Virus record (IMG/VR): IMGVR_UViG_3300002052_000043
Span: 1 to 39,849 of that record
DNA from: a virus
DNA length: 39,849 nucleotides
Reading direction: 5' to 3' (one strand)
The translations under genes were made by a program, and so were the position numbers. The stretch's first letter is position 1. Each line of letters opens with the position of its first letter. The notes under the pieces were generated by a model that worked only from the letters and a program-made list of their open reading frames with translations, was not told the origin of the DNA and did no database searches. Shown piece after piece: positions 21,211 to 39,849 of this stretch.

Positions 21211-22460
21211 TACGTCCTCCCTAATCTATGCAGTTCTAAATCCTGCTGCGCAAGGTAAATATCGAGCGAGTTCGGTCGCCCAGTCGTGATCTCACAGGTC
21301 TCCTTGTCGTCGCGGTAGTTCGTCTTGGTGATCAGGAAAATAAGATCATCTGCGTCCAATGCGGGATCTTGCAGGAAATTCTCGATCCTCAAGCGCTTGC
21401 CAGCCTGGATCTGCGAAGCGGGAAGCAAGTCGCCACTCTTTTTACGAATATGGCCCTCAATCTTGATCGACCTAGCCATGTGCCAATAAGGATCTTTGTG
21501 CGCCTCGAGGAAGCGACGCCCGATATTCACGGCTACGGATTGATCAGCATGACCTATGCGAATCAGATAATCGCGCTGTCCCCAATCACTGATGCTGGTC
21601 GTGTCCTTCAAATTAGCATTATCATCTGGCGTTACCCACTGATTGAACCCCCGCTCATCGCGATATTGAACAACAATCCAGTTCCAAACATTGTTTTCGT
21701 CCGATCCGATATAGCCTTCGGAGATGTCGAAATTAGGTGCAAGATTACTCTCTTCTACCCGAACGGCATAATCATAATCAGTAAGCACCGGATACTGTTC
21801 AGCGAAAAGAATAGGCTTGCTGTCAGTTGAAAGATGCGATCCTCTAATGCCAACTGCCCATCTATTCTGTGAGCTGTCGCCATAACTTGCCGCCTCCTGC
21901 AGAATATCACCGATCGTTGGAAAACCATCAGCAATGATCGGCCTCAAGTCTAGTGTATTGCTTCCGATCAATGTCTCGTTGCTTGATAAATCTGTAAGCT
22001 CGGCGCGTAAGTCTCGAGCGATCTCATATAGATTGACGACATTCTTGCCCCCGGCTGGCGTGTGATTCATGGTGGCATAAACGGTGATATTTCTCATTTC
22101 GGCATATAGATCAAGCGAAGCAGTTGGAACAGTTTGGCTCCCTGCTAAAGAAACAATCTCGAAACTGAGTTCATTACATCCAGCAGCAGGTTCTACATTC
22201 TGGCCCGTATTGCTGCCCGTTGCATCAATAACGAAAAGATCAGTCGCATTCGCTTCATCTCGCAATCTCATCTTCCATGTCTGTCCGCTCGCTTCAAGAA
22301 AGTCATAATCATAATCGACGCGTCTTATGGTTTCGCCCGTAGGTGCGAGATAGGTCAAGCGTGCCGTATCATTGGCCGCCCATGTAACTCCTCCCTGCGG
22401 AACAAAACGCAGCATGTTCTCGCCTTGATCTTCATCGTATCGGATAACGTTCGTTTTCAT
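21210..22460 (-). pseudogene. Tail protein, C-terminal part, out of frame with its N-terminal part
   Basis: About 416 residues if started at the ATG 22460. It encodes the bulk of a tail or baseplate protein: TNVIRYDEDQGENMLRFVPQ, then repeated beta-rich segments (YDYDFLEASGQTWKMRLRD, HADQSVAVNIGRRFLEAHKD), and ends DLELHRLGRT. Removing one copy of the 25-base duplication at 22431-22480 joins it in frame to the upstream segment (22432-22881), giving about 552 residues with the run EQTNVIRYDEDQGEN. The downstream ATG arises inside the duplicated block and lacks a good ribosome site. The product would be a distal-tail or baseplate protein. Whether the shift is an error, a mutation or a switch is open. 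Confidence 0.6.
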
Positions 22461-22480
22461 CGTATCGGATAACGTTCGTT
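22431..22480. repeat. 25-bp perfect tandem duplication inside tail gene
   Basis: Bases 22431-22455 are repeated exactly at 22456-22480. Because 25 is not a multiple of three, the extra copy shifts the reading frame of the tail gene; removing one copy restores it. Such exact adjacent copies typically arise by replication slippage and can be lost in the same way. Confidence 0.95.
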
Positions 22481-22881
22481 TGTTCCGCTTGATAATCCAC
22501 AGGAGTCGACCACATCCATGTTTGTTCATCGGTCCTGGCGTCGGCATAAAGCCTTTGCAATCTCCGCGTGGCAAGTAGAGCGCCCCAATAACCTACGGCT
22601 TCGATTTCAACGCCTTGAGATGCTCGTTGGAGAGCCCGGCGCAAATCTGCAATCTTGCCTTCCCAGACCATTTCTAGCCCATTCATAATTACAAGCCGTT
22701 GGGCACCTTTGACAAACCAGCTCTGAGCAATATCGCGCGGAACATTCATCGAGGCATTTAGATAAAGACCGCCCGGATAACCTTTAGAAAAATTCAATCC
22801 CTCAATCAATTCCAGTTCTCCCATAGGATCATTGATTGGTGTCGTTCCTGTAGAATAAACCACCACTCGTAAATTATTCAT
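22432..22881 (-). pseudogene. Tail protein, N-terminal part, truncated by 25-bp duplication
   Basis: About 149 residues from MNNLRVVV, whose ATG overlaps the upstream stop (ATGA). It reads LELIEGLNFSKGYPGGLYL, then GLEMVWEGKIADLRRALQRA and VEIEAVGYWGALLATRRLQR, a beta-rich N-terminal domain of siphophage tail proteins. It stops after the frame shifts in the second copy of the repeat (TNVIRYDENERYPIR). The first copy's protein sequence TNVIRYDE is thus repeated in both fragments. The intact gene would belong between the LamG-domain tail protein and the lysozyme. Confidence 0.6.
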
Positions 22882-25316
22882 AATAAAGTCCAACGAGGTC
22901 TAATTTCTACCGATGTAAATGTCATCGTATCCGTAATTGTTAAAATTCCGGTGTCGTTCGCCATAATAATCCAGATATAATTGAGCTCTTCTGGTAACAG
23001 CTCTATTTTCCTACCTTTAGTTGGATATAAACTCAGCAACGATCCCGCACTATCTGTACGATAAACAGATTCCTTAGAAATAGTTAGATAATATGACGCA
23101 TATACATTACCATCTACATGGATTAGTTCTCCATTGAGCGCCATCAAAAAATCGCCACGGAAATTAGTCGGAAACGTTCCATCAGTAACTTCTATACCCC
23201 ATCGGCTTTGCTTTGTTGTATCATCAACAAATTTTGGATAATCAAAATACATTGAGCCGAGATAATACCATCGGAAACCATTTATAAGCACACAGTATTT
23301 TTGGTCTCCCTCAATGACATCTCCGCCAGGACCAAAATACATCACCGGAGTTATCCACACGTTCTCAGTCGCATCAGAACCCAATCTCCCAAAAAAGTGG
23401 ATGTCGCCACGGAACTCTTCGGGATAATCGGGATCTAAAGTTTCTACTACAGTAGCCGTTGAAACCGCCGTTTGCTCATATTGTCCGCCACTACATGCAC
23501 CATCAGATGTTCCTTGCATTTCTGCATACCACTGAGATGTTGGATACACAAACTTATTGTACGGCATCCGACATCTAGCGATATAAATACCGGGTAAAGA
23601 CTCTCCTGCTTTGAGCATCTGCATTTCGGTTTCAGCCTGTACGCTTCCCGGTATTCCCCCAATCACACAATAATTATCCCTCGTGCTGTCGTCGCAGTTA
23701 TCGACAACATCATCCCCATCCTTCGTCCACAGCCAGGGGATCGGAGATAGTCGCCGATCATCTTCCACATGCTCAAGTATGTTGGCATAATCATTGGAAA
23801 CTTCGGTTGCACTCATGGCTTGAGCAAAGGTTTCAAAGCCCATGAAGGTGCCACCCGCATGATCTGTAACGTCATTCTTCAAACCAATATAAAGATTTGT
23901 GCCGAACGCCGGAGGAGCATAAACTGATCCAGTCGCTATCTCTGAGCTATTTTTATAAATCTTCATCGTGCCGGGGCCATAGACATAATGAAAAATCATG
24001 ATGTCGCCAGCGGCGAAGGTTTGTGCAGCCGATTCGATATTATTGCCATTGCTGTCTTGAAACTTGAATTTATCGTCTGCATAATCAAAAAGGCCTCTAA
24101 AGGTAAGACCGGTCATATTGAAATGGAACAATGAATGCGAAATTGTGTTGGCATAATCTGTTTTCCAAACAATGCGGATCGTTCCTTCTGCATTATCTAA
24201 ACTATCGGCTGTCGCTATCTTCAATTGTGCTGCCGTCCTACTGCTAGTCGAGGCATGAGCCGTTCCTGACCATGAGCAGCCCAGCATATCACCATGACAG
24301 AGAGGTGTTGCATAGGCTTTTTCTTCGATCTGGAAACCGTCAGTATAAACGGTATAACCGCTCTTAATTTCTATTCCTGTTGCTGTTGCCGAGGCAATGC
24401 CTGTTACCGACGCGGTCAAGCGATAGATTCCATTTCCGATCAGGGTATAAGTTGTCGTCTTGGCCGATCCGTAATAAAGCTGCGCCTGCGTCGCGCTGAT
24501 AACTCCCCCATTCGGCAGCTTGGCGTAACAGCTCAATACATGTGCATTCGTATTGCCGACATCAATTGACTGTGTGAACTGCCCGCCACCACTCGGATCG
24601 GTCAGCTTGGCGCTTGATTTTCCGTGCGCGATAAAAGCTGGATCTGTGTTCTCAGTCGCGGTCAGGCTCGTCGCCGTCCATCCATTATTCCATGTCGAAT
24701 AGCCAAAGATCGGATTGGTCATTTTATTGGTGGTCGCTTCGGGGATGATCGTGCCTCGGCTGATTCCGTCCGTGGTCCCAATGATGTCTTCTAAAATCCC
24801 GCCAACTGCCGAGCCCAAACGCTGTTGAAGACCGAGGGCGAAGGGCTTGATCACCAGTTCGACTGGGCAGGACGGAAGGCCCATCCCACGCAAGGTCGCC
24901 ACGCCATACTGCGTCGATAATGACAACTTACCGCTCAGAATTTCATAGCGTAGGTTCGCTCCGTATTGGCCCCATAAGGGTTCAAAACCCACATCAGAAT
25001 TAGCACGATACTCAAAATAAACAGGGTTCGACGGATCACCCGCTTGATGTAAATACCACTGAAGATTTCCCGCTGCTCTTGCGATCTCGGCGTCGCTTGT
25101 ACCATCAATGTGAACGCCAAATGCCCATCGACGGTCCTGTGCCTTTTTACTAATCAAGCGACCACCGCCTAACCGATTAGCCGATGTTCCAGAACCAATT
25201 TGAACCACCTCATTAATCGAAGGTGGAACAAAGTCTGGACCAAGTCTATAATTGCCTGAATTCAGATCAAGTTCATTGTTCTTGTATGTCAATTTTGCAA
25301 TATAAGTCGTCGTCAT
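22878..25316 (-). CDS. Distal tail / fibre protein with carbohydrate-binding and LamG-like domains
   Basis: 812 residues. The first about 190 residues (IAKLTYKNNELDLNSGNYRLG, RLISKKAQDRRWAFGVHIDG, FEYRANSDVGFEPLWGQYG) resemble a tail protein of the distal-tail type. About 200-330 is a CBM-like module (NPIFGYSTWNNGWTATSLTA, GKSSAKLTDPSGGGQFTQS). About 365-500 resembles a LamG/concanavalin-like jelly roll (NAEGTIRIVWKTDYANTISH, MKIYKNSSEIATGS, GTFMGFETFAQAMSATEV). These modules bind sugars, so it likely contacts the host surface. It follows the tape measure gene and overlaps the tail gene after it. Confidence 0.6.
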   Translation of the reverse strand: MTTTYIAKLTYKNNELDLNSGNYRLGPDFVPPSINEVVQIGSGTSANRLGGGRLISKKAQDRRWAFGVHIDGTSDAEIARAAGNLQWYLHQAGDPSNPVYFEYRANSDVGFEPLWGQYGANLRYEILSGKLSLSTQYGVATLRGMGLPSCPVELVIKPFALGLQQRLGSAVGGILEDIIGTTDGISRGTIIPEATTNKMTNPIFGYSTWNNGWTATSLTATENTDPAFIAHGKSSAKLTDPSGGGQFTQSIDVGNTNAHVLSCYAKLPNGGVISATQAQLYYGSAKTTTYTLIGNGIYRLTASVTGIASATATGIEIKSGYTVYTDGFQIEEKAYATPLCHGDMLGCSWSGTAHASTSSRTAAQLKIATADSLDNAEGTIRIVWKTDYANTISHSLFHFNMTGLTFRGLFDYADDKFKFQDSNGNNIESAAQTFAAGDIMIFHYVYGPGTMKIYKNSSEIATGSVYAPPAFGTNLYIGLKNDVTDHAGGTFMGFETFAQAMSATEVSNDYANILEHVEDDRRLSPIPWLWTKDGDDVVDNCDDSTRDNYCVIGGIPGSVQAETEMQMLKAGESLPGIYIARCRMPYNKFVYPTSQWYAEMQGTSDGACSGGQYEQTAVSTATVVETLDPDYPEEFRGDIHFFGRLGSDATENVWITPVMYFGPGGDVIEGDQKYCVLINGFRWYYLGSMYFDYPKFVDDTTKQSRWGIEVTDGTFPTNFRGDFLMALNGELIHVDGNVYASYYLTISKESVYRTDSAGSLLSLYPTKGRKIELLPEELNYIWIIMANDTGILTITDTMTFTSVEIRPRWTLL

Positions 25317-27247
25317 ATTCCCACATATCCAGTGCCCGACATTCTTGCTTGCTCAGCCATCCTCCCAAGCTCGTATGAGATTTCCTGAGCGATCGCATGC
25401 CCATCCGCACCTTCGCCGACATGAACATGAATTTCACCAATGCTCATACTACTTGAGCTTGGACCATATTGACCCTGTGGTGTGACCGTTACCTGTTCAC
25501 CCGCGGTCGCAAAGAAAGATACTGGAACACGATCAACGCCTGGAGGTCCTTGAACAGTCCAAGTTCCACCTTGCTGTCTGCGCTGAGTTTCTGGAAGCGT
25601 AATGGGAATATCAACGCCGAGCTGCCGAAGGATGTAATAGGCCCGTTCAAGATCCTCAAGCCCCGTAATCTCAAGGGCGACTTCAGGCGTTACCTCTTCT
25701 GGCAAGTCCGTGAGCTTCGTGTCCAGTGTGCCCACGGCGGTCGCAAATTCATCGACCGTGATCTTGTCCGCGGCCAAAAGTTGCGTGAGCTCGCCCATGT
25801 TTTCCCACGCTTCACGAGTTGGCTCATCGATCAATCCCATCTGCTCGGCAAGTGCCCCAAGTGCTTCGGCCTGAACATCAATCGGTAAAGCCTCAAGTGC
25901 TCTAGCGGCCATGTTGAAAAGGATCTCTTGCGTGTTTCTCTGCCAAGCCTTTTTCTCTTCCTCAAGAGCTTTTTCACTGTCCTTAAGTGCTCCTTGTAAA
26001 TCTTCGAGATCGTCCGTCTTCCAAGATGGCACACGTTCAATATCGCCGTATTTAGCGATAAATTCATCTAATGCACTCTTGGCTTCATCGTATTCTGCTT
26101 GAAGATCGCGTAGTTTTTCTTCATGATCTTCTATGGATTGCCCCAATTCGACACCGATGAGATAGTTCAACTCCTTGATCTGGGATTCAGCTAACTCTTC
26201 GATCTCCTCGGCGGTCAATCCTGCCTGCTCGCCAACCGCCTCTAATCCGCCTTCTACTTCACCTAAAGAATCCCGCACCAACTTGTTGACATCATGGAGA
26301 TCCTGCTGGGTTTGTTTGAATTTGAGGACATTGATCCGTGCGTCAATTTCTTCTTTGGCTATTCCTCTATATCTCTCAGGGATACCCTCAAGTGATTCGG
26401 ACCATTCTTCAAGTGCTTCAATGGAGTTCCAGCGCTCATCCGTTTCCTGCTTGGAGGCTTTTTGGGCTTCCTGTACCGTCTTGATCCAATCATTTAGAGA
26501 TTCAACTGCGGGTGTTATTCCTTCGGCAATAGCAACTTTGAACGCATCGGTAATCTCGCCTATCGTGACCTTGAATTGAGCATACGTATCCGCTGCGCTT
26601 TCGGTCGTACCGCCCGCCTGTTCGATCAGCGTCCCGCCAGCCTCAATGGCCGCATTCAGCAGCGCCATCTTCTGCTCGGTGGCGGTCAGTTCTTTGGAGG
26701 TTTTGCCAAGTTTTTCCGCGTACTTTTCGTTGGCCTCACCGACCTTGATCGTGAGCCCGAGGTTATCCAAAATAAGCGGGGACGCTCGCTTGATGCCCGT
26801 TGCGAGGGACTGGTACATGAAGTTTGTATCGCCAAGAGCAGGATTTAGTTTGTTAGCAGCCTTGGCGATTTCCATGAGCTGAGGTGTTGCGCTGACAAGA
26901 GCCTGAGCAAGCTCTTCCTCTGCGCCCGCGGCGAGCGTCATCGTCGCCGACATCAGATCAATGTCTTTGATCGTCCCGCGTGATGCTGACCGCAGATCGT
27001 CAAGCAAATCGGGAGCAACGCCTACTTTTTCAAGAAAGAGATCAAAGGATTCCCGTGTCTGTGTGATGACCGCGCCCTGCTCAGCCCATTCAAAAGCCTT
27101 TTTAACTGTGATATTCATACCCATAAAGGAGACGCCCGTAAGCAGTGCAGTTTTGGCAAGAGAATTTAAATTATCTATTGCGGATTTCGTGCCTTTACGC
27201 GTCTCATCTATAGTTTTAATAATTAGTTGAACTTCATTGCCGGGCAT
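25313..27247 (-). CDS. Tape measure protein
   Basis: 644 residues. The N-terminus (VQLIIKTIDETRKGTKSAID) and an early hydrophobic stretch (LLTGVSFMGMNITVKKA) are followed by TREGFDLFLEK-type and AGAEEELAQALV helices and long coiled coils (LEEWSESLEGIPERYRG, HEEKLRDLQAEYDEAKSALD). This fits phage tail length tape measure proteins, which run inside the tail tube and set its length. 644 residues would correspond to a fairly short tail. Its ATG overlaps the stop of the tail chaperone extension (TAATG). Confidence 0.85.
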   Translation of the reverse strand: MPGNEVQLIIKTIDETRKGTKSAIDNLNSLAKTALLTGVSFMGMNITVKKAFEWAEQGAVITQTRESFDLFLEKVGVAPDLLDDLRSASRGTIKDIDLMSATMTLAAGAEEELAQALVSATPQLMEIAKAANKLNPALGDTNFMYQSLATGIKRASPLILDNLGLTIKVGEANEKYAEKLGKTSKELTATEQKMALLNAAIEAGGTLIEQAGGTTESAADTYAQFKVTIGEITDAFKVAIAEGITPAVESLNDWIKTVQEAQKASKQETDERWNSIEALEEWSESLEGIPERYRGIAKEEIDARINVLKFKQTQQDLHDVNKLVRDSLGEVEGGLEAVGEQAGLTAEEIEELAESQIKELNYLIGVELGQSIEDHEEKLRDLQAEYDEAKSALDEFIAKYGDIERVPSWKTDDLEDLQGALKDSEKALEEEKKAWQRNTQEILFNMAARALEALPIDVQAEALGALAEQMGLIDEPTREAWENMGELTQLLAADKITVDEFATAVGTLDTKLTDLPEEVTPEVALEITGLEDLERAYYILRQLGVDIPITLPETQRRQQGGTWTVQGPPGVDRVPVSFFATAGEQVTVTPQGQYGPSSSSMSIGEIHVHVGEGADGHAIAQEISYELGRMAEQARMSGTGYVGI

Positions 27248-27522: not shown

Positions 27523-27812
27523 GGAATGGCGTCAAGCCCGCTCATGTGAGTCAGGACTTTCGTGCCAACCCACAAAATAAGCCTTGTCAAAGCGGGATCT
27601 GTTTCCTTATCAATGTCGATCTCTTTGGGATCGGGCCACTGATCACACTTCCATCCATTGATGACCTGCAAAGCTCCCTCCCAATGTCTGATCCACATCT
27701 CTTGCCCGAATGCTTCACTGATCGCACTGAAATACGCGAGTTGAGTGCGAACGAGGATATGATCCGGTACGGAAAACTCAACGCCGTGCTGTTCGTTCTT
27801 GAACTCGGCCAT
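27510..27812 (-). CDS. Tail assembly chaperone (G-type, zero frame)
   Basis: 100 residues from MAEFKNEQHG, whose ATG overlaps the tail tube stop (TGATG). An alternative start MEREPYV at 27872 has a nearby TGGAGAC but would overlap the tail tube gene by 60 bases. The sequence (VRTQLAYFSAISEAFGQEMW, ALTRLILWVGTKVLTHMSG) is helical, as for tail assembly chaperones. It ends two codons after the in-frame slippery heptamer A-AAA-AAC. Function: keeps the tape measure in solution during tail assembly. Confidence 0.7.
   Translation of the reverse strand: MAEFKNEQHGVEFSVPDHILVRTQLAYFSAISEAFGQEMWIRHWEGALQVINGWKCDQWPDPKEIDIDKETDPALTRLILWVGTKVLTHMSGLDAIPKNV
27516..27522 (-). promoter_or_regulatory. Programmed -1 ribosomal frameshift site
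   Basis: On the minus strand the heptamer A AAA AAC lies in the exact X-XXY-YYZ phase of the chaperone gene (codons CCA AAA AAC GTA TAA). After slipping -1 the ribosome continues CGT ATA AAG GCG into the downstream frame. Downstream GC-rich GGCGGCGGTT and CCGCCGCC (27500-27470 region) can pair to form a stimulatory hairpin. Confidence 0.75.
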
Positions 27813-28225
27813 CAGGACAGAGCCACGCTGGTTCGGTTCACCGCTCCTGAAAACGTAAGGCTCGCGCTCCATGTCTCCAGGGTATCGGATGCGCCTGAAT
27901 ACGCGGGTGCGGTCACAAAAACCTCACCGTTGTAATAACGATTGGCGTAGGCTTGAAACTGAACCGTTTTGGTGATGGATGTCCGGTTTCCTACAAGCGG
28001 GCCGAAAATCCCATCTGTGGTCGAGTTGAGAAACCCATTCAAATCGATGGTCGCCCCGGCCATGCCTGGAAGATAGGTGCGCTCTTCATCGCTCAGCGCA
28101 CTGTCCTCGAGGATGTTGAGGGCTCCAGTAAGGCCTTGACTGTTGACGTGTGCCGTGATGTCTACCAGCGCGCCCGTGCTGTCGTCGATCTTGATTCCCA
28201 TATCCTTAAACAACAAATTCGCCAT
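27812..28225 (-). CDS. Major tail tube protein
   Basis: 137 residues, AAGGAGCAGGCAG upstream. The N-terminal LLFKDMGIKIDDSTGALVDI, then VFVTAPAYSGASDTLETWSA and a final SLTFSGAVNRTSVALS are typical of siphophage tail tube proteins, which stack as hexameric rings. The order tube - chaperone - tape measure (reading leftward) is the standard tail module. Confidence 0.75.
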   Translation of the reverse strand: MANLLFKDMGIKIDDSTGALVDITAHVNSQGLTGALNILEDSALSDEERTYLPGMAGATIDLNGFLNSTTDGIFGPLVGNRTSITKTVQFQAYANRYYNGEVFVTAPAYSGASDTLETWSASLTFSGAVNRTSVALS

Positions 28226-29339: not shown

Positions 29340-29642
29340 TCACTCCTCAGCCTCTATGTCCAGCCACGCCTCCAAGGTGTTGCCGCTATAAACCCATTTG
29401 AACTCTAGCCGATAATCTTCGCCTGCAGTCAAGCCAATGACCAAGGGCGAAGTGATCAAAACCCCTGTCGTGTCAATCGTTCCCGAAAGATTGGTCTCCG
29501 AAATATTTACACCGGTACTGTCTTTCAAGACACAAGTTGCATCACTTGAATAACCGCCCCAGTTGGTCGTGTCCAAGACATAAGCGACCCTTTCGTCTTC
29601 GCCCTGTTTATGTGGATTTTCTTTGACATGTCTTACGGTCAT
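29340..29642 (-). CDS. Small structural protein, beta-sandwich-like
   Basis: 100 residues. TCVLKDSTGVNISETNLSGT and ITSPLVIGLTAGEDYRLEFK have the alternating pattern of a small beta-sandwich resembling a fibronectin- or immunoglobulin-like module, typical of virion decoration domains. The stop overlaps the start region of the connector gene (TGACC ATG). It could be a head or neck accessory protein. No specific family recognised. Confidence 0.5.
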   Translation of the reverse strand: MTVRHVKENPHKQGEDERVAYVLDTTNWGGYSSDATCVLKDSTGVNISETNLSGTIDTTGVLITSPLVIGLTAGEDYRLEFKWVYSGNTLEAWLDIEAEE

Positions 29643-31075
29643 TTTTCCTCCAGGGTCAGCACAAATGATCGCTCATATAAATCGAGAACAAAAGAACGAT
29701 CATCTAAAGTTAATGTCACAATACTGGCAAATAATCCAACAATATCCCATGCTAACGTTAAATCTTTGTTCACTGACTCTAACAAATCCCACTGCAAACC
29801 TAGGTCTTTATTTGCCAATTCTGCAATGTCCCAGTTCAGCACTTGATCCTGATTTGCGGTTACCAGAATATCCCAAGTTAGTGCCTGGTCCTTATTGATC
29901 GTATTAAACAAATCCCACTGCAGTATCAAATCCTTGTTGACAGCACCTTCTATGTCCCACACAAGAATTAAGTCCTTGTTAACTACACCTTCCATATCCC
30001 AAACAACAACCAAATCCTTATAGGCAACCCCTTCCATATCCCACACGAGCGATAAGTCTTTATTGATTAGGCCGAAGATGTCCCATGCTAGAACATGGTC
30101 TTTGTTCACTAAGCTGAACAAATCCCATTCTGCAGCTAAATCTTTGTTGATTAACCCAAAGACATCCCAAGCAAGTGATAAATCCTTTTGAATAACACCT
30201 TCCATGTCCCAAACAAGGGTGAGATCTTGATAGATAAGTTCCGCAATATCCCACTGAAGAGCATGATCCTTGTTGACGAGGCTCAAAATATCCCATTGAA
30301 GTGCTTGATCCTTATCAACCGCGTTCAAGAGGTCCCATTGGGCGGCCAGATCTTTATTGATAATCTCGGCCAGATCCCATTGAGCGCTCAGGTCTTGATA
30401 GACCTGAGCCAGACCGCCGATCCTGGCATCTTCGGCTTGAACTTCATCAAAGTAAGTCGTCGAATAGGAACCAACATGCCAGTTATAAGCACCTACTCCG
30501 AAGTTAAGAACAGGAGACGTTAGTTCGGATCTTTTTCCACTCCCCGTCCAATCTCCTATGCTAACGCCATCAATCCACAACTCAACATAAACGTTGGTTC
30601 CAGACCAATCATAAAGAAATTCGATCTCATATTCCGTGTCTTCGCTGATCGAATATTCTATTCCACATTCTTGATAATCAGCGCTATCGTGGGCTCTCAT
30701 TCTTATGGTATCCCCTTGAGGATCGAGATGAAGCCCTATATACATACTTCCACCATCTGTGCTCCCGGCATATTCATTGATGCCGGCCAACAGACAGCAA
30801 TAGTCATAACTACAGTTACCGTGTCCGGTTGTCTGTAAAAGGAAATAAACATATATTTTGTCATTCGCGGGATTCGTGATATTTTTGCATCCAAAAGCCA
30901 CATCTCCTGATGAGCCCGATGTTGTATATCCTCGAAAACTATAGCTTCCCTCAAGCGCTGGCGAGCTGACCGTATCTACCACACCAGTGCCAGTTGTATA
31001 GGTAGAATCACAATCGTTAAGATTGTTTTCTTCGAAGTCTAATGTTGAAGGAGAATTAGTAAATACAGTCGTCAT
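29639..31075 (-). CDS. Fibre-like protein: LamG-type domain plus 16 copies of a 14-residue repeat
   Basis: 478 residues. The first about 225 residues (STLDFEENNLNDCDSTYTTG, YEIEFLYDWSGTNVYVELWI, WHVGSYSTTYFDEVQAEDAR) look like a LamG/concanavalin jelly roll that binds sugars. Residues about 226-449 are sixteen nearly perfect repeats of NKDLxLxWDIxxLV type, 14 residues each. The last 29 residues (VTLTLDDRSFVLDLYERSFV) are a cap shared with the next large protein (31412-35071). Strand-like L-x-L-x-W-D-I spacing suggests a beta-helical or solenoid stalk, probably oligomeric. It likely is a virion fibre. Confidence 0.65.
   Translation of the reverse strand: MTTVFTNSPSTLDFEENNLNDCDSTYTTGTGVVDTVSSPALEGSYSFRGYTTSGSSGDVAFGCKNITNPANDKIYVYFLLQTTGHGNCSYDYCCLLAGINEYAGSTDGGSMYIGLHLDPQGDTIRMRAHDSADYQECGIEYSISEDTEYEIEFLYDWSGTNVYVELWIDGVSIGDWTGSGKRSELTSPVLNFGVGAYNWHVGSYSTTYFDEVQAEDARIGGLAQVYQDLSAQWDLAEIINKDLAAQWDLLNAVDKDQALQWDILSLVNKDHALQWDIAELIYQDLTLVWDMEGVIQKDLSLAWDVFGLINKDLAAEWDLFSLVNKDHVLAWDIFGLINKDLSLVWDMEGVAYKDLVVVWDMEGVVNKDLILVWDIEGAVNKDLILQWDLFNTINKDQALTWDILVTANQDQVLNWDIAELANKDLGLQWDLLESVNKDLTLAWDIVGLFASIVTLTLDDRSFVLDLYERSFVLTLEEK
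29729..30400 (-). repeat. 42-bp coding repeat array, 16 units
   Basis: The minus strand encodes 16 consecutive 14-residue units, with the plus-strand signature TCCCA (for W-D) recurring about every 42 bases. The units differ at many bases but keep Asp, Leu, Trp-Asp and hydrophobic positions, so selection acts on protein. Not a CRISPR array. Confidence 0.9.
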
Positions 31076-31411: not shown

Positions 31412-34400
31412 TCATCTTTCATCCAGGATCAATGTGACAGAACGTTCATCAAGTGTAAGATCAAAAGATCGCGGATAAAGCGTGAGATCAACAATCCCTG
31501 TATATAGCACAAAAATATCCCACACCAAGGTTAAATCTTTATTCATCAACTGATCCATATCCCAAACCAGTGTCTGACTACTGCCAGCCAGCTCAAATAT
31601 GTCCCAAATAAGATCTTGGTCTTTATTAACGATTATCAGGATGTCCCAGGTAAGCTCCTGATCTTTTTCAATCGTAACTAGAATGTCCCATTGGGCATCT
31701 AAGTCTTTGCTGATGAGTTCCGCAAGATCCCATTGAAGGCTCAAATCTCTGTTCGCTAGTTGGGCAATATCCCAGACAAAATCCTGATCTTTTTCTATGG
31801 ATGTAAGAATATCCCAATGCAGCTCCAGATCTTTACTGATAAATTCCGCTATATCCCAGACAATAGACAAATCCCGATAAATAACACCACTGAGATCCCA
31901 AACAAGGGTCAAGTCCCTGTTTGCCAATCCCGCTATATCCCAAGTAATTGTTATATCTTTTTCAACCAAAGCCCCGATGTCCCATTGAGCATCAAGGTCT
32001 TTGTTGATCGTTCCTAGAATATCCCATTGAAGATCGAGATCGGCATTGGCGAAGCTCAGAATATCCCAAACAAGAGCCATGTCCTGATAGACGCCCGCAG
32101 CTAGAATATCCCAAACGAGATCGAGGTCTTTGTTTGCAAGTTGGCGAATGTCCCAAGTTATAGATTGATCCTTGCTGGCAAGATTTAAGAGATCCCATTG
32201 AAGATCAATATCTTTGTAAACCCCAACTCCAATATCCCAAACGATTGCCAAATCCTCATAGGCTAATTGGGCCATATCCCAGATTAATTCAATATCCTGA
32301 TTGACAACATTGAAGATGTCCCATACCAAAGACTGCTCTCGATAGACTGCGTTCAATAAATCCCATTCAAGCGTCAAGTCTTTATTCGTGAGATTTCGCA
32401 GATCCCACTGAAGCGCCAAGTCCTGGTAAACCCCACCGATGATGTCCCAGACGAGCGACAGATCTTGACTGGCAAGCTGGGAGATGTCCCACTGAAGGAC
32501 AAGATCGTTGTTCACGAGTTGGGCGATGTCCCAAGCGAATGATTGGTCTTTATTCGCAACAAGGAAAATATCCCATTGAGCCGTCAGATCACTAATGGCA
32601 AGCTCCGTCAAGTCCCACTGCAGAATCAAATCATTGTTTGCTAATTCGGCGATGTCCCACGCAAAAGATTGATCCCGATTTGCCAGGACGAATAAATCCC
32701 ATAAAGCCGTCAAATCCTTGTTGATCAGATTTTGGAGATCCCACTGGAGCGTTAAGTCTTGATAAACACCAGCACCTAAAATATCCCATACAATCTCAAG
32801 GTCTTTGTTGATAAGATTAACAATATCCCACTCGAGTGTTTGATCCTTGTTGACCATTGAAAGGATGTCCCAAACCAAGGACTGATCCTTTTCGACCACA
32901 ATGAGGATGTCCCATTGTAAAGACTGATCTTGGCTGACGAGCTCCGCAATGTCCCATTCGAGCTGAAGCTCTTGATAGACCGAGCCGACTATATCCCAAA
33001 CTAGGGTCACGTCCTGATTGACGAACGATAAAATATCCCATTGCAAAGCGCTGTCTTGATAAACGGAATTGAGCAAATCCCACTGAAGAGCCAAATCGTT
33101 GCTTGCCAGTTGCGCCAGATCCCAAAGCAAAGATAAATCTTGATGCACCACGCCCGACATATCCCAGACAAGCACAAGATCGAGATTCGCAATCTGGGCC
33201 ATATCCCATTGGAAAGTCTGGGAATTGGCGGCTAAAACAAAGATGTCCCAATCTGCGGATAAGTCATGATTAACAAAGTTGAATAAATCCCATTGAAGAG
33301 TTAATTCTTTATTGATCGCACCAAATAAATCCCATTGCAATTCGAGGTCTTTAGTCGCAAGTTCGGCCAGATCCCATTGGAAGGCTTGATCTTGATAGAT
33401 GAGATTAAAGAGATCCCAGGCAAGAGACAAATCTTTATTGACTATGCCGGAGAGATCCCACTGAAGCGCTAAATCTTTATAAGCGAGCTCGGCAATATCC
33501 CACTGAAATTGCTTATCCTGATTTACAAGAGAGAAGATGTCCCATTGAGAGGCTTGATCTTGATATACCAAATTCAAGAGATCAAATTGGGCAGTTAAAT
33601 CCTTGTTGACGTTTTCGGCAATATCCCATTGAGCAGCGAGATCTTGATTTACTGTTGCCCCTCCAGCAGAATATTCAATATGGAGTTTGGCGGCATAAGA
33701 ACTATCTTGATCGTATAAATAAACACCTAAATCTCTAAGGGTATTTTCACTACCCTGAATAATACAGAGCATTGGTGCGCCGGAGGAATAATCATAAGTT
33801 CCAATAAGTTCCTCAATAATTGTTGTGACATTAATTGTTCCTTCCGCTAATTCCGAAAGCCAGCCAGGGCCTCCCAAACCCTCATTAGAATATTTAATAC
33901 TTGTAGAAGTTGGGGTTCGTCCAGAAATATCATAATAATCAGCCACGAACGCAGCCGGGTCGTCAGTATCTTCAAAATATACATTATGATCTGGCTCATC
34001 ATAATTTGCGTGATAGACATACGCATCAATTGTGGCTGTAATTATTGATGCTCCCGATGGAATAACTATACCTCGCCAGCAAAATGCAACGAATTCGTTT
34101 GTATAATCAACTATTGTATAGCTTGCCGTAGGATCACAAGTTCCTGTGCTGGATTCTCTTGAATCGTCTGCACCTTCGGCAATTGTTTTATCAACTGTCG
34201 TATCAATCTCGATTGGGTAAACAGCAGATTGAATCCAATCCAAAGGAATGCGATGTTGAACAAATAGATATGGGCCTTGTTTATAAAGCCTGAAAATTCC
34301 TATTAGTTCAGTTGGCTCATATTCTTCATCTTCGGGATTATCGCTTTCATTAGATTTCGGAAGCTGGAAATGCCAAAGTGTTTTTTGTGTTGATTTCTGG

Positions 34401-35071
34401 CGAAATTCTACATACCCTGATGTTTCTACTGGATTGTTGGGATTTTCGTTCCACTTTATATCATTTACATAAATCTCAAGATCGTTGGATTTTTGAAAAA
34501 TAAATTCCAATTTAAGACATGGATTACCGCCATCTAAGATATATTGCTCTGGAATTGGCAAGGCCGCTAAGTTCTGGATAATCAGACGCTTATCTAAGCG
34601 GGTAGTTTGTGCCTGCCAGCGCAAATCTATATCGTTGCCGAAAGCACCCGTCCAATATAAAGCATCATCATCAACAGATGCCTCAACAGATTGTGGATCG
34701 GCAATTGCTTGGATTTGATCTAGGTCATTCGTGTATTGAAGCTGTAGGGGCTGAAAGGCGATGCTCTGGCCGCTGTTGGGGTCAACATATTTGACAACCT
34801 GCCCATAAGAGAAATTGGACAAGGCATAGGCATTGTAGCCCGCCTTGATCATCTCGTAATCCCAAGGTGCGGTTCCAGCCTGCCACGCGGTGTCGATTTC
34901 CTGGTCGAAACTTGCCCCGTAGTGAAGCGGTCCGATGGAGCAGTCCAGCACATAGCGACCAGGAATAGACGGAATGCTGTGCTTGAGCGATTTTTCTTTT
35001 CGCTCAAATACCTCCGCATCTGGATATTTGGCCTTTACCTTGGCCCTTATTTCTGCGGCTGGATTAGCCAT
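31412..35071 (-). CDS. Giant fibre-like protein with about 51 copies of a 14-residue repeat
   Basis: 1219 residues. The first about 474 form a beta-rich head: IPGRYVLDCSIGPLHYGASF, then WRGIVIPSGASIITATIDAY, GPGWLSELAEGTINVTTII and LYDQDSSYAAKLHIEYSA, the latter resembling a DNRLRE-type adhesion module. Residues about 475-1190 are about 51 tandem 14-residue repeats (typical unit NKDLTLVWDIFVL); two units have one extra residue. The last 29 residues (VDLTLYPRSFDLTLDERSVT) are homologous to the cap of the 478-residue protein. The stalk probably forms a long beta-solenoid. It is most likely a virion fibre; its host receptor is unknown. Confidence 0.7.
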   Translation of the reverse strand: MANPAAEIRAKVKAKYPDAEVFERKEKSLKHSIPSIPGRYVLDCSIGPLHYGASFDQEIDTAWQAGTAPWDYEMIKAGYNAYALSNFSYGQVVKYVDPNSGQSIAFQPLQLQYTNDLDQIQAIADPQSVEASVDDDALYWTGAFGNDIDLRWQAQTTRLDKRLIIQNLAALPIPEQYILDGGNPCLKLEFIFQKSNDLEIYVNDIKWNENPNNPVETSGYVEFRQKSTQKTLWHFQLPKSNESDNPEDEEYEPTELIGIFRLYKQGPYLFVQHRIPLDWIQSAVYPIEIDTTVDKTIAEGADDSRESSTGTCDPTASYTIVDYTNEFVAFCWRGIVIPSGASIITATIDAYVYHANYDEPDHNVYFEDTDDPAAFVADYYDISGRTPTSTSIKYSNEGLGGPGWLSELAEGTINVTTIIEELIGTYDYSSGAPMLCIIQGSENTLRDLGVYLYDQDSSYAAKLHIEYSAGGATVNQDLAAQWDIAENVNKDLTAQFDLLNLVYQDQASQWDIFSLVNQDKQFQWDIAELAYKDLALQWDLSGIVNKDLSLAWDLFNLIYQDQAFQWDLAELATKDLELQWDLFGAINKELTLQWDLFNFVNHDLSADWDIFVLAANSQTFQWDMAQIANLDLVLVWDMSGVVHQDLSLLWDLAQLASNDLALQWDLLNSVYQDSALQWDILSFVNQDVTLVWDIVGSVYQELQLEWDIAELVSQDQSLQWDILIVVEKDQSLVWDILSMVNKDQTLEWDIVNLINKDLEIVWDILGAGVYQDLTLQWDLQNLINKDLTALWDLFVLANRDQSFAWDIAELANNDLILQWDLTELAISDLTAQWDIFLVANKDQSFAWDIAQLVNNDLVLQWDISQLASQDLSLVWDIIGGVYQDLALQWDLRNLTNKDLTLEWDLLNAVYREQSLVWDIFNVVNQDIELIWDMAQLAYEDLAIVWDIGVGVYKDIDLQWDLLNLASKDQSITWDIRQLANKDLDLVWDILAAGVYQDMALVWDILSFANADLDLQWDILGTINKDLDAQWDIGALVEKDITITWDIAGLANRDLTLVWDLSGVIYRDLSIVWDIAEFISKDLELHWDILTSIEKDQDFVWDIAQLANRDLSLQWDLAELISKDLDAQWDILVTIEKDQELTWDILIIVNKDQDLIWDIFELAGSSQTLVWDMDQLMNKDLTLVWDIFVLYTGIVDLTLYPRSFDLTLDERSVTLILDER
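31502..33649 (-). repeat. 42-bp coding repeat array, about 51 units
   Basis: About 2.1 kb of minus-strand coding repeats, each 42 bases (two are 45), translating to xKDLxLxWDIxxLx. On the plus strand TCCCA or ATCCCA recurs at each W-D position. Unit sequences are diverged at synonymous and surface positions. The regular Trp-Asp and Leu positions show protein-level conservation. Confidence 0.92.
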
Positions 35072-35526
35072 TATTCTCTCACGGTCGCAATTACCTTTAC
35101 CTCATCATCATCTGGATTCAAGGGAAATACTTTTCGATATTTGAAATGATCCTTTTCGGCTTTTGCTCGGAGCTCATCAATATCTAATCCCGCGGGGTGA
35201 TAATGAATCACCCCGAGTTCACCCAATTCAGGAATTTCCTCAACAAGTCGAATATAAAGCGTTCGAGGATTGGCCCACATACTGTTGAGAAAAATAGGCT
35301 CCGAATAGTGAATCAGGAAGATGCAGCCAAACTTATCGGCAAGCCATTTGTCACTTTCTGGCAGCTTGCGCGTAAAATTCTTTTTCTGCTCTTTGGATTG
35401 ATCATCAGGGAGGACCATTTGGATCCCTTTGTCCTGCAAATATTGGACAATGGGCAAATAATCCTCCTTGAATTGACGCATGACCAGAATACGCCGCATC
35501 AAGCGGACATCGTTTTCTATAAGCAT
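35071..35526 (-). CDS. Hypothetical protein
   Basis: 151 residues. RRILVMRQFKEDYLPIVQYL, GIQMVLPDDQSKEQKKNFTR and LGVIHYHPAGLDIDELRAKA show no recognised domain. Positioned between the large repeat protein and a structural protein, with one-base overlap to the former. Hydrophobic strand/helix alternation suggests a globular protein. It could be a fibre assembly factor or virion protein. Confidence 0.5.
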   Translation of the reverse strand: MLIENDVRLMRRILVMRQFKEDYLPIVQYLQDKGIQMVLPDDQSKEQKKNFTRKLPESDKWLADKFGCIFLIHYSEPIFLNSMWANPRTLYIRLVEEIPELGELGVIHYHPAGLDIDELRAKAEKDHFKYRKVFPLNPDDDEVKVIATVRE

Positions 35527-35538
35527 TGCAAATCCCTT

Positions 35539-36078
35539 CTAAGCTGCGGTATCGCCCTCGCAGCGCATCGTCACACTCTCTGCTGACTGCGCTGATGCAC
35601 TGGCCGAAATCTGCCGACGAAGCCAGAGTCCGAACCAATCGCCCGCCGCAAGATCCGATCCTGTCCCCGGGAAATCCTTGCCCGTTGCCTTGCTTGTGGC
35701 ATCGGACCATCCACCAAGGCCTGTTGGCGCGGTGCTTTCATTGGCAATCGATTGAATGCTTCCCGTGGTTTCATCAGAAGGTTCTTCAACATCAAACGAA
35801 ATATCATCCTCAGCATTACCGGTGTCTGTTTGGATCCAGACCTTGCCGCTTGTCAGCGCCAATGATCCGTGATTGTTCAAAAAACCCACCGCTCGATATT
35901 CCGTGTCGCCCGACGAGGCCTCATCGCCCGTCACATCATCGAATAGGTTGTTATCCCCAGCACCGACATCGTTTGATGCCCGATAACTTCCGAGCGAAGC
36001 ATCCGGATCGGATTGAGCTGCGTTGTGCGTTGCGGCTCCTGTCAGCTTGTAAAGAAGATCACTTTGTGAGATTGCCAT
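35539..36078 (-). CDS. Structural protein of the fibre region
   Basis: 179 residues, AAAGGAGAAAG before its ATG. Ser/Gly/Ala/Asp-rich, beta-type sequence (LGSYRASNDVGAGDNNLFDD, KVWIQTDTGNAEDDISFDVE) with ISASASAQSAESVTMRCEGD near the end, similar in character to phage appendage or head-fibre proteins. It overlaps the end of the glycosyltransferase gene. Assignment as a virion protein is based on composition and position. Confidence 0.55.
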   Translation of the reverse strand: MAISQSDLLYKLTGAATHNAAQSDPDASLGSYRASNDVGAGDNNLFDDVTGDEASSGDTEYRAVGFLNNHGSLALTSGKVWIQTDTGNAEDDISFDVEEPSDETTGSIQSIANESTAPTGLGGWSDATSKATGKDFPGTGSDLAAGDWFGLWLRRQISASASAQSAESVTMRCEGDTAA

Positions 36079-37429: not shown

Positions 37430-37671
37430 TTTTTGGCCTCCACTTCTGCTTGAATACGATCCTGTTTTCTTGGTGCATCCTCAATGTGTCGTTTGATGGC
37501 CGGTGCAAGCTCGCCATGGCTAGGTCTGAGCCCTCCCCAGTTCACCATCGGAACGTTCGGTTTCCTGTGCATCACCAGTCCACAGTCACATAGGATTGCG
37601 GTACTGTATAGCATCCTGACTTCGACTTCCCTTTCATGTCCTTCTGGGCAGAGATAAATAAATTCAGGCAT
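37426..37671 (-). CDS. FmdB-like zinc-ribbon protein
   Basis: 81 residues from MPEFIYLCPEGHEREVEVRM, the FmdB/regulatory zinc-ribbon start (Y-x-C-xxxGHxxE), followed by ILCDCGLVMHRKP (CxC). The rest is a charged linker. Such proteins are common in Chloroflexota and phages and may bind nucleic acid. The start overlaps the stop of the TIM-barrel gene, tying the two together. Confidence 0.65.
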   Translation of the reverse strand: MPEFIYLCPEGHEREVEVRMLYSTAILCDCGLVMHRKPNVPMVNWGGLRPSHGELAPAIKRHIEDAPRKQDRIQAEVEAKK

Positions 37672-38554
37672 ATTGACTGATCGCCCATTCGATCTCTTCA
37701 AGCATCCAGGGCTCGATCTTGCGATGCTTCTGAAAATTGTGTTTCGGTGCGGTGAACATCCGCGCGCCGCCCGCTTTCAAAATCGGCACGTTTTCGCGCA
37801 TCCCCTGTATGTACTCCGTCCCGGCGAAGTAAGTCATCGCTTCCCATTTTTGATTTTCTTGGATGCGTTCTCTGATGTGTTTTCTCCCGATATGTTGCAC
37901 ATAGGTAAAGATGATCCCATAATGCTTTGCGAATGGAAATGCGCTGAATAACGCACCATAAACCGGCGACCAATACTCCGGGTCTGTGTACGGATGGTAA
38001 GCCGTCCAGATCTCTCCATGTTGCAGTTCCATTAATCTCTGACGATCCACAACCCACGATGTGAACAGTTCCATCGGGTAATCCATACGACCATGTGCCG
38101 GGAAAAGATGTAGTGCGAATTCCCCATTTGCGGGGATGGCATAGATCACCTGAACTTCATCGCCTTGATAGCGATCGATGATCTCTTCAATGAACTCATC
38201 TAACTCGGCGGCAAGTTCCACATTTTCATAATTCGGCACGCCGTAAGCCTGCCCGCGGATTTCTCGACTGTAAAAGTAGCTGTCCGGCTTCCATCCCGGT
38301 ATCGAATAAACAAAAGGAATAAGTGCTTTCAGCCCAGCGCGACTCATGTTCTCCACAAACGCATCGAGGATCGACCAGTCTAACGGCGCATCCGCGCTGG
38401 GCTGCATGATGTCCCAACGAACTGCAGCTTGGAAATAGATCGTTTTCACACCGGCACTTTTGAGCATCTTCATCTCATCAAGCGTCAATGCCACATCTTC
38501 CATGCGGTTGTTCAGATCCATGATGATGATATATTCGTCGGGATCGATAAACAT
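37664..38554 (-). CDS. TIM-barrel glycoside-hydrolase-like protein
   Basis: 296 residues from MFIDPDEYI (start overlaps the upstream stop as TAATG; TGGAAG before it). KMLKSAGVKTIYFQAAVRWD, IMQPS and LDWSILDAFVENMSRAGLKA then LIPFVYSIPGW and VIYAIPANGEFALHLFP (Asn143-Gly-Glu145) follow the beta/alpha alternation of GH42/GH14-like beta-galactosidase-type barrels, with Glu145 as possible acid/base. The substrate cannot be predicted and a second catalytic Glu is not certain. It lies between the ABC binding protein and a zinc-ribbon gene. Confidence 0.5.
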   Translation of the reverse strand: MFIDPDEYIIIMDLNNRMEDVALTLDEMKMLKSAGVKTIYFQAAVRWDIMQPSADAPLDWSILDAFVENMSRAGLKALIPFVYSIPGWKPDSYFYSREIRGQAYGVPNYENVELAAELDEFIEEIIDRYQGDEVQVIYAIPANGEFALHLFPAHGRMDYPMELFTSWVVDRQRLMELQHGEIWTAYHPYTDPEYWSPVYGALFSAFPFAKHYGIIFTYVQHIGRKHIRERIQENQKWEAMTYFAGTEYIQGMRENVPILKAGGARMFTAPKHNFQKHRKIEPWMLEEIEWAISQYA

Positions 38555-39582
38555 TACTTCCAACGCTGCCTTACCCGTTCACCATAAGCGTAGTATTTGT
38601 CAACATCTTCGGCCAGGATGATTGGTGCGGGATACCAATTTGCGAATTGGATTTCCTCACCGTGAAGCAGATCCACTAGGAGCTCAACCGCTCGATAGGT
38701 TTCTTCATAAAGCGGTTGACCCACAATCGCATAAACCCATCCCTGGCTCAACCAGTCTAGGTTCTGCTCCGAATAATCCATGCTGACGACCATCACATCG
38801 CCCGGTTCCTTGCCCGCATCTCGTAAGGCGGTCGCCCACGTTGTCGAGCCCGCACCTGTCGTCGAGTAAGCCCCGGTGATGTCGGGATGTGCAGTCAGGA
38901 TCGCCGCCGCTTTGGCGATGGCCGCTGCGGGTTCCCCGCCTTCCTCTTCGGGCGGGAACCCTTCGATCCCCGGACAGAGCTCCTCCATACGTGCTGTAAA
39001 AGCATTCACCGCGGGCGTTTCGATGTCGTTGGGCCCGAAGAACGTGGTTGCGATCGGTCCTTTACACTCCAGCTTTTCGGCCATCATATCGGCCACACGC
39101 TCGGAATAATCAACCGAATTCGGCGCAACCCAGGAATTCGCGATGTCGCCCTCGAGCTCGTCATCCAGTGCGATGTGAAACCCAACGATCGGGATTCCCG
39201 ATCCCATGATGTCGCGCATGTTTTCGTACAGGAAACCATCGGGGTAATAGACCACGCCCGATGATCCGAGGCTGATGCACTCTTCGCCCCGAGCGATCAG
39301 CGCCGAAATATCGACGTAATCGATCCCGGCCATCACGCAGTCCACGTCATAGTCCTCGCACGCCTCAAAAAAGCCCAGCATCATGATCCTTACGATGGGA
39401 TGCTGATTGTTCGGCACGACCATGCGGAACGGGTTGCCTCCTTGCAGGTCGCGGTTAGTCGGTTCCGATGTCTCTGTGGGTAACACCTCCTCCGTAATAA
39501 CGGCAGTCGGCTGTGGCTCAGGTTTGGTAGAGCAAGCTGCCAGCACCAGCACAACCATAAGAAAAAGCCTGGTCTTTTTCAT
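38554..39582 (-). CDS. Sugar-type ABC transporter substrate-binding lipoprotein
   Basis: 342 residues. MKKTRLFLMVVLVLAACST is a signal peptide with lipobox VLAAC (lipidated Cys17), followed by a Pro/Thr/Glu-rich linker (PQPTAVITEEVLPTETSEPT). VVPNNQHPIVRIMMLGFFEA, GIPIVGFHIALDDELEGDIA, ITGAYSTTGAGSTTWATAL and VMVVSMDYSEQNLDWLSQGW follow the ribose/galactose-type periplasmic binding protein (Peripla_BP_4-like) fold. These bind a sugar outside the membrane and deliver it to the permease. The permease gene end overlaps its start. No phage structural role is evident. Confidence 0.85.
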   Translation of the reverse strand: MKKTRLFLMVVLVLAACSTKPEPQPTAVITEEVLPTETSEPTNRDLQGGNPFRMVVPNNQHPIVRIMMLGFFEACEDYDVDCVMAGIDYVDISALIARGEECISLGSSGVVYYPDGFLYENMRDIMGSGIPIVGFHIALDDELEGDIANSWVAPNSVDYSERVADMMAEKLECKGPIATTFFGPNDIETPAVNAFTARMEELCPGIEGFPPEEEGGEPAAAIAKAAAILTAHPDITGAYSTTGAGSTTWATALRDAGKEPGDVMVVSMDYSEQNLDWLSQGWVYAIVGQPLYEETYRAVELLVDLLHGEEIQFANWYPAPIILAEDVDKYYAYGERVRQRWK

Positions 39583-39849
39583 ATCTGAGATTCCTCCATA
39601 ATGTCTAATTTAATTTTGCGACGCGCATCAAGGAACATTGCCAATGACAACGCCGCTCCGATGACGATCATTTGCAGATAAGGCGACATGCCGACTGCGA
39701 CCAAGCCGTTCGCCAGAACCTGCATCGTTGCAAGCCCCAAAAACGCACCGATCAAAGATCCTTCATAGCCGTAGATGCTCCCCCCGCCGATCGCACAGGC
39801 GGCGAGAGCTTGAAACTCCCATCCTTGGCCCAACAAAGGTTGTGCGGCA
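39579..39849 (-). CDS. ABC transporter permease (C-terminal part, partial)
   Basis: About 89 residues visible; the gene continues past the right edge. FQALAACAIGGGSIYGYEGS, LIGAFLGLATMQVLANGLVA, GMSPYLQMIVIGAALSLAMF follow the C-terminal membrane helices of RbsC/BPD_transp_2 permeases, where 'A-x-x-I-G-G-x-S-x-x-G-x-x-G-S' is the conserved coupling region. The stop overlaps the start of the substrate-binding lipoprotein, the normal order permease - binding protein for some sugar uptake systems. The ATPase gene is not in the window. Confidence 0.75.
   Translation of the reverse strand, partial: AAQPLLGQGWEFQALAACAIGGGSIYGYEGSLIGAFLGLATMQVLANGLVAVGMSPYLQMIVIGAALSLAMFLDARRKIKLDIMEESQI

What the first reader, a model, noticed from the sequence alone, without database searches (positions are those of the whole stretch)
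31502..33649. A 1219-residue fibre with about 51 copies of a 14-residue W-D repeat
Directly seen: about 51 consecutive units with the pattern x(K/Q)DLxLxWD(I/L)xxLx, only two of them one residue longer. Inference: the L-x-L-x-W-x-I alternation followed by a short turn is compatible with a beta-solenoid or triple beta-helical stalk, with each unit one rung. The Trp and Asp at fixed positions could make a ladder along the fibre. I do not recognise the repeat as a named family.
Basis: partly seen in the sequence, partly recalled or inferred. Interest (0 to 1): 0.78.

Follow-up and report, generated by a model that had tools for sequence, protein, structure and literature searches.

The report
Phage strand array with co-evolved partner
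Two proteins of this virus of bacteria carry long rows of one short 14-residue segment, and the same kind of row occurs in very different phages almost always beside a gene for one small beta-sandwich protein that has co-evolved with it, so the row is probably a string of docking sites that many copies of the partner bind, rather than a fibre that folds by itself.

Summary
In detail: ORF 31412-35071(-), 1219 aa, has 51 consecutive WD units, 48 spacings of 14 residues and two of 15. No Pfam, NCBIfam or PDB sequence match; PHROG 6079 ('tail protein') hits the repeat. The real news is a partner. A 179-aa beta-sandwich protein (phrog_13135, window 35539-36078) is linked to such arrays in siphoviruses, KVP40-like myoviruses (array = C-terminal extension of tail-terminator gp15; five relatives checked without the partner have no extension) and an Alteromonas podovirus. 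Loci picked only by the partner carry 14-residue aromatic arrays (51/80, against at most 8/80 for any other period). Residue 169 of the partner is small when the array uses Trp and bulky (Phe/Tyr) when it uses Tyr: found in one set, replicated in held-out loci (15/16 and 15/18), holds within each GC tercile, and on the tree about 8 changes agree and 0 oppose. So the partner most likely binds the units; its predicted Ig-like fold resembles donor-strand pilins, which suggests that each unit is a donor strand. The self-folding solenoid/triple helix is not supported. Binding is inferred; donor-strand geometry is a hypothesis.

The parts
31412..35071 (-). Array protein 1 (P0001), 1219 aa
33653..35071 (-). 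N-terminal module (residues 1-473); 45-51% identical modules in 16 other viral contigs are joined to other repeats or to none
31505..33652 (-). 51-unit 14-residue WD array (two spacings of 15)
   Evidence: similar R-x-hydrophobic-x-hydrophobic tails in many relatives
29639..31075 (-). Array protein 2 (P0002), 478 aa
29732..30403 (-). 16-unit array, all spacings 14
30404..31075 (-). N-terminal domain of P0002 (residues 1-224); resemblance to concanavalin-like lectins is by eye only
   Evidence: sequence; no Pfam hit
29639..29731 (-). C-terminal segment of P0002 with 9-mer cap (VTLTLDDRS FVLDLYERS FVLTLEEK)
35539..36078 (-). Partner protein (phrog_13135), 179 aa, predicted Ig-like beta-sandwich (pLDDT 92, pTM 0.88)
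35572..35574 (-). Codon of V169 of the partner, the residue whose size co-varies with the array's aromatic
35071..35526 (-). 151-aa gene between partner and array; a 44% identical protein lies between the same genes in L051
31072..31404 (-). 110-aa protein between the two array genes, no match
29340..29642 (-). 100-aa protein downstream of P0002; a relative lies near the P0001 N-terminal module in L349
27812..28225 (-). Major tail protein (context)
   Evidence: phrog_10528, E 1.9e-8
25313..27247 (-). Tape measure protein, 644 aa (context: long-tailed virion)

Best explanation
P0001 and P0002 are virion fibre backbones of a long-tailed phage. Each 14-residue unit is one extended beta-strand with alternating hydrophobic side chains (positions 5, 7, 9, 11, the aromatic at 9) plus a short linker, and it is a docking site for one copy of the co-encoded beta-sandwich protein phrog_13135 (35539-36078). 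The aromatic enters a pocket lined by residue 169 at the start of the partner's last strand. The likely geometry is donor-strand complementation as in chaperone-usher pili, but with all strands supplied in tandem by one chain, giving 'beads on a string' with up to 51 + 16 partner copies. A fully extended 14-mer (about 47 A) is about as long as one Ig-like domain, which would explain the fixed period. Shown: the arrays, the specific two-way genetic linkage, the co-variation. Inferred: physical binding. Hypothetical: donor-strand geometry, presence in the virion, and a role of the variable N-terminal domains in contacting host or environment.
For: Linkage from array to partner: (relatives of the window partner beside arrays in more than a dozen loci, also KVP40 and F86); every record of 26 kb or more that I checked with this array type has it. 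Linkage from partner to array: 80 loci chosen only by phrog_13135; 51 have 5 or more consecutive aromatics at period 14, against at most 8 for any other period from 8 to 22 (44 against 3 for 6 or more); nearest array on the same strand in 48/49, gap of 60 nt or less in 23/49. Isolates: phrog_13135 is found in only 54 of 50,697 phage records, 52 of them Vibrio phages; all ten named isolates that I read, including an Alteromonas podovirus and Vibrio EniLVp02 (Tyr for Trp), have an adjacent array. Gain together: gp15 is 319-504 aa with array plus partner in nine Vibrio phages but 226-278 aa, with gp16 directly next, in five relatives without partner. Co-variation: partner residue 169 small with Trp arrays (29/30), bulky with Tyr/Phe arrays (17/20); held-out dissimilar loci 15/16 and 15/18, Fisher 6e-6; tree-disjoint pairs about 8 for, 0 against, p 0.008; best of 172 columns; holds in each GC tercile. 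Fold: many of the VIA-align rows (Z 5.3-6.8) are donor-strand pilins or their homologues (FimA, FimG, FimI, PapA, CfaB, CS17). Array alone is not confidently folded by AF2.
Against: No direct evidence of binding or of either protein in a virion. VIA Z values of 5-7 are middling for beta-sandwiches, other folds (PorA N-domain 7.2, plant/bacterial hexosaminidases 7.0) rank as high, and Foldseek gave no PDB hit below E 0.001. The partner model is already confident without an added strand, which is not what a strictly incomplete fold requires. The low AF2 confidence of the array may reflect the shallow alignment. Several phrog_13135 loci show no recognisable array within reach (some fragments, some not). 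Co-variation has exceptions (10 of 91 sequences, several with mixed arrays).
Confidence: 0.6

Rival explanations
1. Self-folding stalk: the units form a beta-solenoid or a trimeric beta-helix/prism with an internal Leu-Trp-Ile core; phrog_13135 only caps or decorates it.
For: L-x-L-x-W-x-I alternation and about one predicted strand per unit; shared C-terminal cap repeats.
Against: AF2 confidence in the array only 55-65, with a known AF2 bias to solenoids for repeats (PMC11795689). A buried aromatic would not be expected to co-vary with one residue of another protein. In KVP40-like phages the array hangs on gp15, a hexamer in T4 (own knowledge), which does not suit an obligate trimer. Relatives have 15-residue and irregular units.
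Confidence: 0.15
2. phrog_13135 is a dedicated assembly chaperone that binds the strands during folding and is absent from the virion.
For: Adjacent same-strand genes and co-variation fit any specific binder; one weak fold match to a PapD-like domain (6fvi).
Against: Fold matches are mostly to pilin subunits rather than to chaperones; the partner lies among virion genes.
Confidence: 0.2
3. The array is a multivalent glycan- or cell-wall-binding region whose exposed Trp/Tyr stack on sugars; phrog_13135 is merely a frequent neighbour in the structural module.
For: Some neighbouring or attached N-terminal domains look lectin-like (Laminin_G_3, weak, in another window protein).
Against: Does not explain why loci picked by phrog_13135 carry 14-residue arrays, the joint presence in KVP40-like phages, or the size-complementary co-variation. 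Six records with a different 14-residue WD repeat have no phrog_13135.
Confidence: 0.05

Closest known systems
Chaperone-usher pili (FimA/FimG/PapA/CfaB), donor-strand complementation
   Same: Partner's predicted sandwich aligns end to end with pilins (e.g. 3bfq_G, residues 13-144; Z 6.2); the unit has the alternating hydrophobic pattern of a donor strand; the co-varying residue is in the last strand, the one that in pilins borders the acceptor groove (own knowledge).
   Different: All strands would come from one tandem chain instead of from the next subunit; partner shows no signal peptide; no usher or periplasmic chaperone seen; middling Z values.
T4 gp15 tail terminator and its KVP40-type extended form
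   Same: KVP40 gp15 carries the same class of 14-residue array C-terminally and the partner gene follows it.
   Different: gp15 of relatives without the partner has no array; in the window the array sits on unrelated N-terminal modules.
PHROG 6079 ('tail protein') and PHROG 13135 ('unknown function')
   Same: Profiles match the array (E 2e-22 and 8e-8) and the partner (E 2e-17).
   Different: No function, no pairing and no co-variation attached to them in the library.
T4 Hoc capsid fibre (PMC10385173)
   Same: A phage surface fibre made of Ig-like domains.
   Different: Hoc's Ig domains are one polypeptide; here they would be separate subunits on an array.
SANWDSVYTSV 14-residue WD repeats of other phages (L053, L033, L022, L075)
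   Same: Period 14 with Trp-Asp.
   Different: Different consensus, no phrog_13135 in six whole records.

Membership tests
PHROG 6079 tail protein repeat | Profile match over several units | tested here: met
   P0001 E 2.3e-22 (8 stretches), P0002 E 7.5e-8
PHROG 13135 | Profile match of the partner over most of its length | tested here: met
   E 2.4e-17, residues 19-179, profile 25-182/182
Array-plus-partner module proposed here | Aromatic every 14 residues for 5 or more units | tested here: met
   51 and 16 units
Array-plus-partner module proposed here | phrog_13135 gene within a few kb, same strand | tested here: met
   35539-36078, minus, about 470 nt upstream of P0001
Array-plus-partner module proposed here | Trp array with small residue at partner position 169 | tested here: met
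   V169
Array-plus-partner module proposed here | Physical binding of partner to units | not testable with these tools
   needs co-expression or structure
Chaperone-usher pilus | Pilin-like Ig fold of the subunit | tested here: inconclusive
   VIA-align Z 5.3-6.8 to many pilins, Foldseek E above 0.001
Chaperone-usher pilus | Secreted subunit with signal peptide | tested here: not met
   Partner begins MAISQSDLLYKLTG, no signal peptide by eye; no usher or chaperone Pfam hit among 18 window proteins
WD40 repeat | Units of about 40 residues ending in WD, Pfam match | tested here: not met
   Unit is 14 residues; no Pfam match
Beta-solenoid / triple beta-helix fibre | Array folds by itself into stacked rungs | tested here: inconclusive
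   AF2 pLDDT 55-65

The most novel reading that the evidence does not exclude
Phages of three tail types share an undescribed way to build a fibre: one chain carries tens of donor strands in tandem, and a separate Ig-like subunit threads onto each, making a pilus-like virion filament of genetically set length without usher or secretion. The array spreads by fusion to whatever virion protein is at hand (gp15, lectin-like heads) together with its partner gene, and Trp/Tyr versions keep matching pockets.
Probability: 0.4. Interest if true: 0.88.

Novelty: new variant of a known kind. Interest (0 to 1): 0.72.

Why it matters
It turns an odd repeat into a testable two-gene system found across myo-, podo- and siphovirus-like phages, gives a role to a protein family so far listed as 'unknown function', and predicts a contact (array aromatic against partner residue 169). 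If the donor-strand reading holds, it is a new way to build long filaments of countable subunits, and it makes the function of gp15 extensions in KVP40-like Vibrio phages, which are in culture, open to test.

Tried and rejected
Protein search with P0001 or with the P0002 N-terminal domain in viral contigs: nothing. PDB sequence search with P0001, P0002 and a 30-row repeat profile: no relative. NCBIfam hits for L301 and L066 are low-complexity matches far below cut-off. HHBS14_1, VAC7 and PhiR12_3 tblastn hits were looked at and rejected as unrelated. Natural fusion of partner and array: none found; the split phrog_13135 hits in L239, L235, L303 and L323 have long non-array inserts. Recent DNA expansion rejected: units share on average only 52% of bases. 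GC content as the cause of the Trp/Val against Tyr/Phe pattern: rejected. Tree forks supported by both measures leave only two independent Trp/Tyr contrasts in the first set, so I enlarged the set.

Full report
WHAT IS THERE. The window is a 39,849-base virus record (IMG/VR, linear). ORF 31412-35071 on the minus strand encodes 1219 residues. From residue 474 it consists of 51 consecutive units, W (once F) followed by D in every unit, 48 spacings of 14 and two of 15. All units differ; mean identity is 41% in protein and 52% in DNA, so the period is held by selection and not by recent duplication. A second gene, 29639-31075(-), has 16 units at exactly 14. Both end in three 9-residue repeats (LTLDERS type), and similar short R-x-hydrophobic-x-hydrophobic tails end many relatives. 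The genes lie among virion genes: major tail protein 27812-28225, tape measure 25313-27247, terminase, portal and protease at the left end.

KNOWN FAMILIES. Pfam and NCBIfam have no model for the array; PDB sequences have no relative. PHROG 6079 ('tail protein') matches P0001 at E 2.3e-22 and P0002 at 7.5e-8.

RELATIVES. A DNA pattern (TGG-GAY every 42 nt, four times) in viral contigs brought distant relatives on many N-terminal domains. A 4-unit profile built without the Vibrio phages finds the C-terminal extension of the gp15 tail terminator of Vibrio phages F86 (E 1.5e-25) and KVP40 (E 2.9e-15). KVP40 gp15 matches T4 gp15 only over its first 222 residues; the rest is the array. The N-terminal module of P0001 occurs with 45-51% identity in 16 other contigs, joined to quite different repeats or to none, so the array behaves as a mobile module.

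A PARTNER GENE. Comparing all window proteins with all fetched loci showed that the protein at 35539-36078 (179 aa, phrog_13135, 'unknown function') has a relative next to the array in locus after locus, including the gene right after gp15 in KVP40 and F86. I then asked the reverse question: 80 viral loci were chosen only by this protein. In 51 of them an ORF within about 4 kb holds 5 or more consecutive aromatics at period 14; no other period from 8 to 22 exceeds 8 (6 or more: 44 against 3). Several of the remaining loci hold imperfect, 15-residue or non-aromatic versions. The nearest array is on the same strand in 48 of 49, within 60 nt in 23 of 49, on either side. Among 50,697 isolate phages, phrog_13135 occurs in 54, of which 52 are Vibrio phages. 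I read ten named isolates with it; all have an adjacent array, in Vibrio EniLVp02 and the Alteromonas podovirus PT15-A5 with Tyr in place of Trp. The uncultured 595 kb record LR756511 has two copies and no clear array.

WITHIN ONE PHAGE GROUP. gp15 relatives occur in 2077 records. In five relatives without the partner gp15 is 226-278 residues and gp16 follows directly. In nine Vibrio phages gp15 is 319-504 residues and the partner gene sits between gp15 and gp16. Extension and partner go together.

CONTROLS FOR SPECIFICITY. Six whole records with another 14-residue WD repeat (SANWDSVYTSV) have no phrog_13135. Array records without the partner are fragments of 6-25 kb; those of 26 kb and more that I checked have it.

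CO-VARIATION. Arrays are mostly Trp or mostly Tyr/Phe. This class, read from the array gene, follows the tree of the partner (7 changes against 17.8 for shuffled labels). One partner column stands out, window V169 at the start of the last strand: V/A/M/S/G with Trp arrays, F/Y/W with Tyr arrays. I fixed this as a prediction in the notebook and fetched new loci. In held-out sequences under 0.85 similar to any other: Trp arrays 15 small, 1 bulky; Tyr/Phe arrays 3 small, 15 bulky (Fisher 6e-6). Fisher ignores relatedness, so I used branch-disjoint pairs on a 91-sequence tree: about 8 agree, 0 oppose, 5 tie (sign test 0.008; all branches of a quick tree, not only the well-supported ones). With every column given its own best recoding, this column ranks first of 172 (net 9.3; 97.5th percentile 5.4). 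GC content does not explain it: the association holds in each GC tercile. Large aromatic with small partner residue, smaller aromatic with Phe or Tyr, is what a pocket contact would give. Two other columns (L45, residue 74 of L362) also rank high and were not followed up.

STRUCTURES. The partner is predicted with pLDDT 92, pTM 0.88 as a beta-sandwich. Foldseek finds no confident PDB match. VIA-align rows include many donor-strand pilins and homologues (CfaB 6.8, CS17 6.5, FimA 6.4, FimI and FimG 6.2, PapA 5.6), together with unrelated sandwiches of equal Z (PorA N-domain 7.2); such Z values are a lead, not proof. P0002 with 18 sequences is poor: array pLDDT 55-65 with about one strand per unit, N-terminal domain below 50. 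AF2 is biased to solenoids on repeats (PMC11795689), so I do not read geometry from it.

MECHANISM. The simplest account is that the units are docking strands for phrog_13135. A donor-strand arrangement would use the alternating hydrophobics at 5, 7, 9, 11, place the aromatic near the partner's last strand, and explain the period (14 extended residues, about 47 A, roughly one Ig domain). I put binding at about 0.8 and donor-strand geometry at about 0.45; 0.6 is for the statement as a whole. Rivals are a self-folding stalk, a non-virion chaperone, and a glycan-binding array.

NOVELTY. The pieces are listed in PHROGs without function. The paper searches, limited to open-access text, brought up no description of the pairing. 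I file it as a new variant of phage fibre and keep the stronger reading (a tandem donor-strand fibre) as the novel case.

Noticed in passing
37664-39849 (-): At the right end, beside virion-like genes, lie a cut ABC-type permease (by eye), a Peripla_BP_4 lipoprotein (38554-39582, E 1e-21) and a glycosidase-like protein; host flank of a provirus or cargo is undecided.
   Followed up: no
22431-22481: A perfect 25-bp tandem duplication lies where two minus-strand tail genes (22432-22893 and 21210-22574) overlap; possibly a split or frameshifted gene.
   Followed up: no
L053, L033, L075, L022, L025, L094: A separate 14-residue WD repeat (SANWDSVYTSVKNT) in other phages, without phrog_13135.
   Followed up: partly
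L359 2656-2849 (Vibrio phage 1.081.O, MG592456.1): The record annotates 'CRISPR spacers' 2-6 at 42-nt steps inside gp15; they are the DNA of the 14-residue array, so the annotation looks false.
   Followed up: yes
L337-L351: The N-terminal module of P0001 is joined to about 20-residue repeats (GAITLADATLAATAQVPVDGD; AVADALLALAAESPTLTQHN), in several contigs just upstream of a head-morphogenesis gene.
   Followed up: partly
L239, L235, L303, L323: phrog_13135-like domains split by inserts of several hundred to over 1000 residues in large phage proteins.
   Followed up: no
L396 6799-8580: A 14-residue array next to phrog_13135 in which the aromatic is replaced by Ala or another non-aromatic residue.
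   Followed up: no
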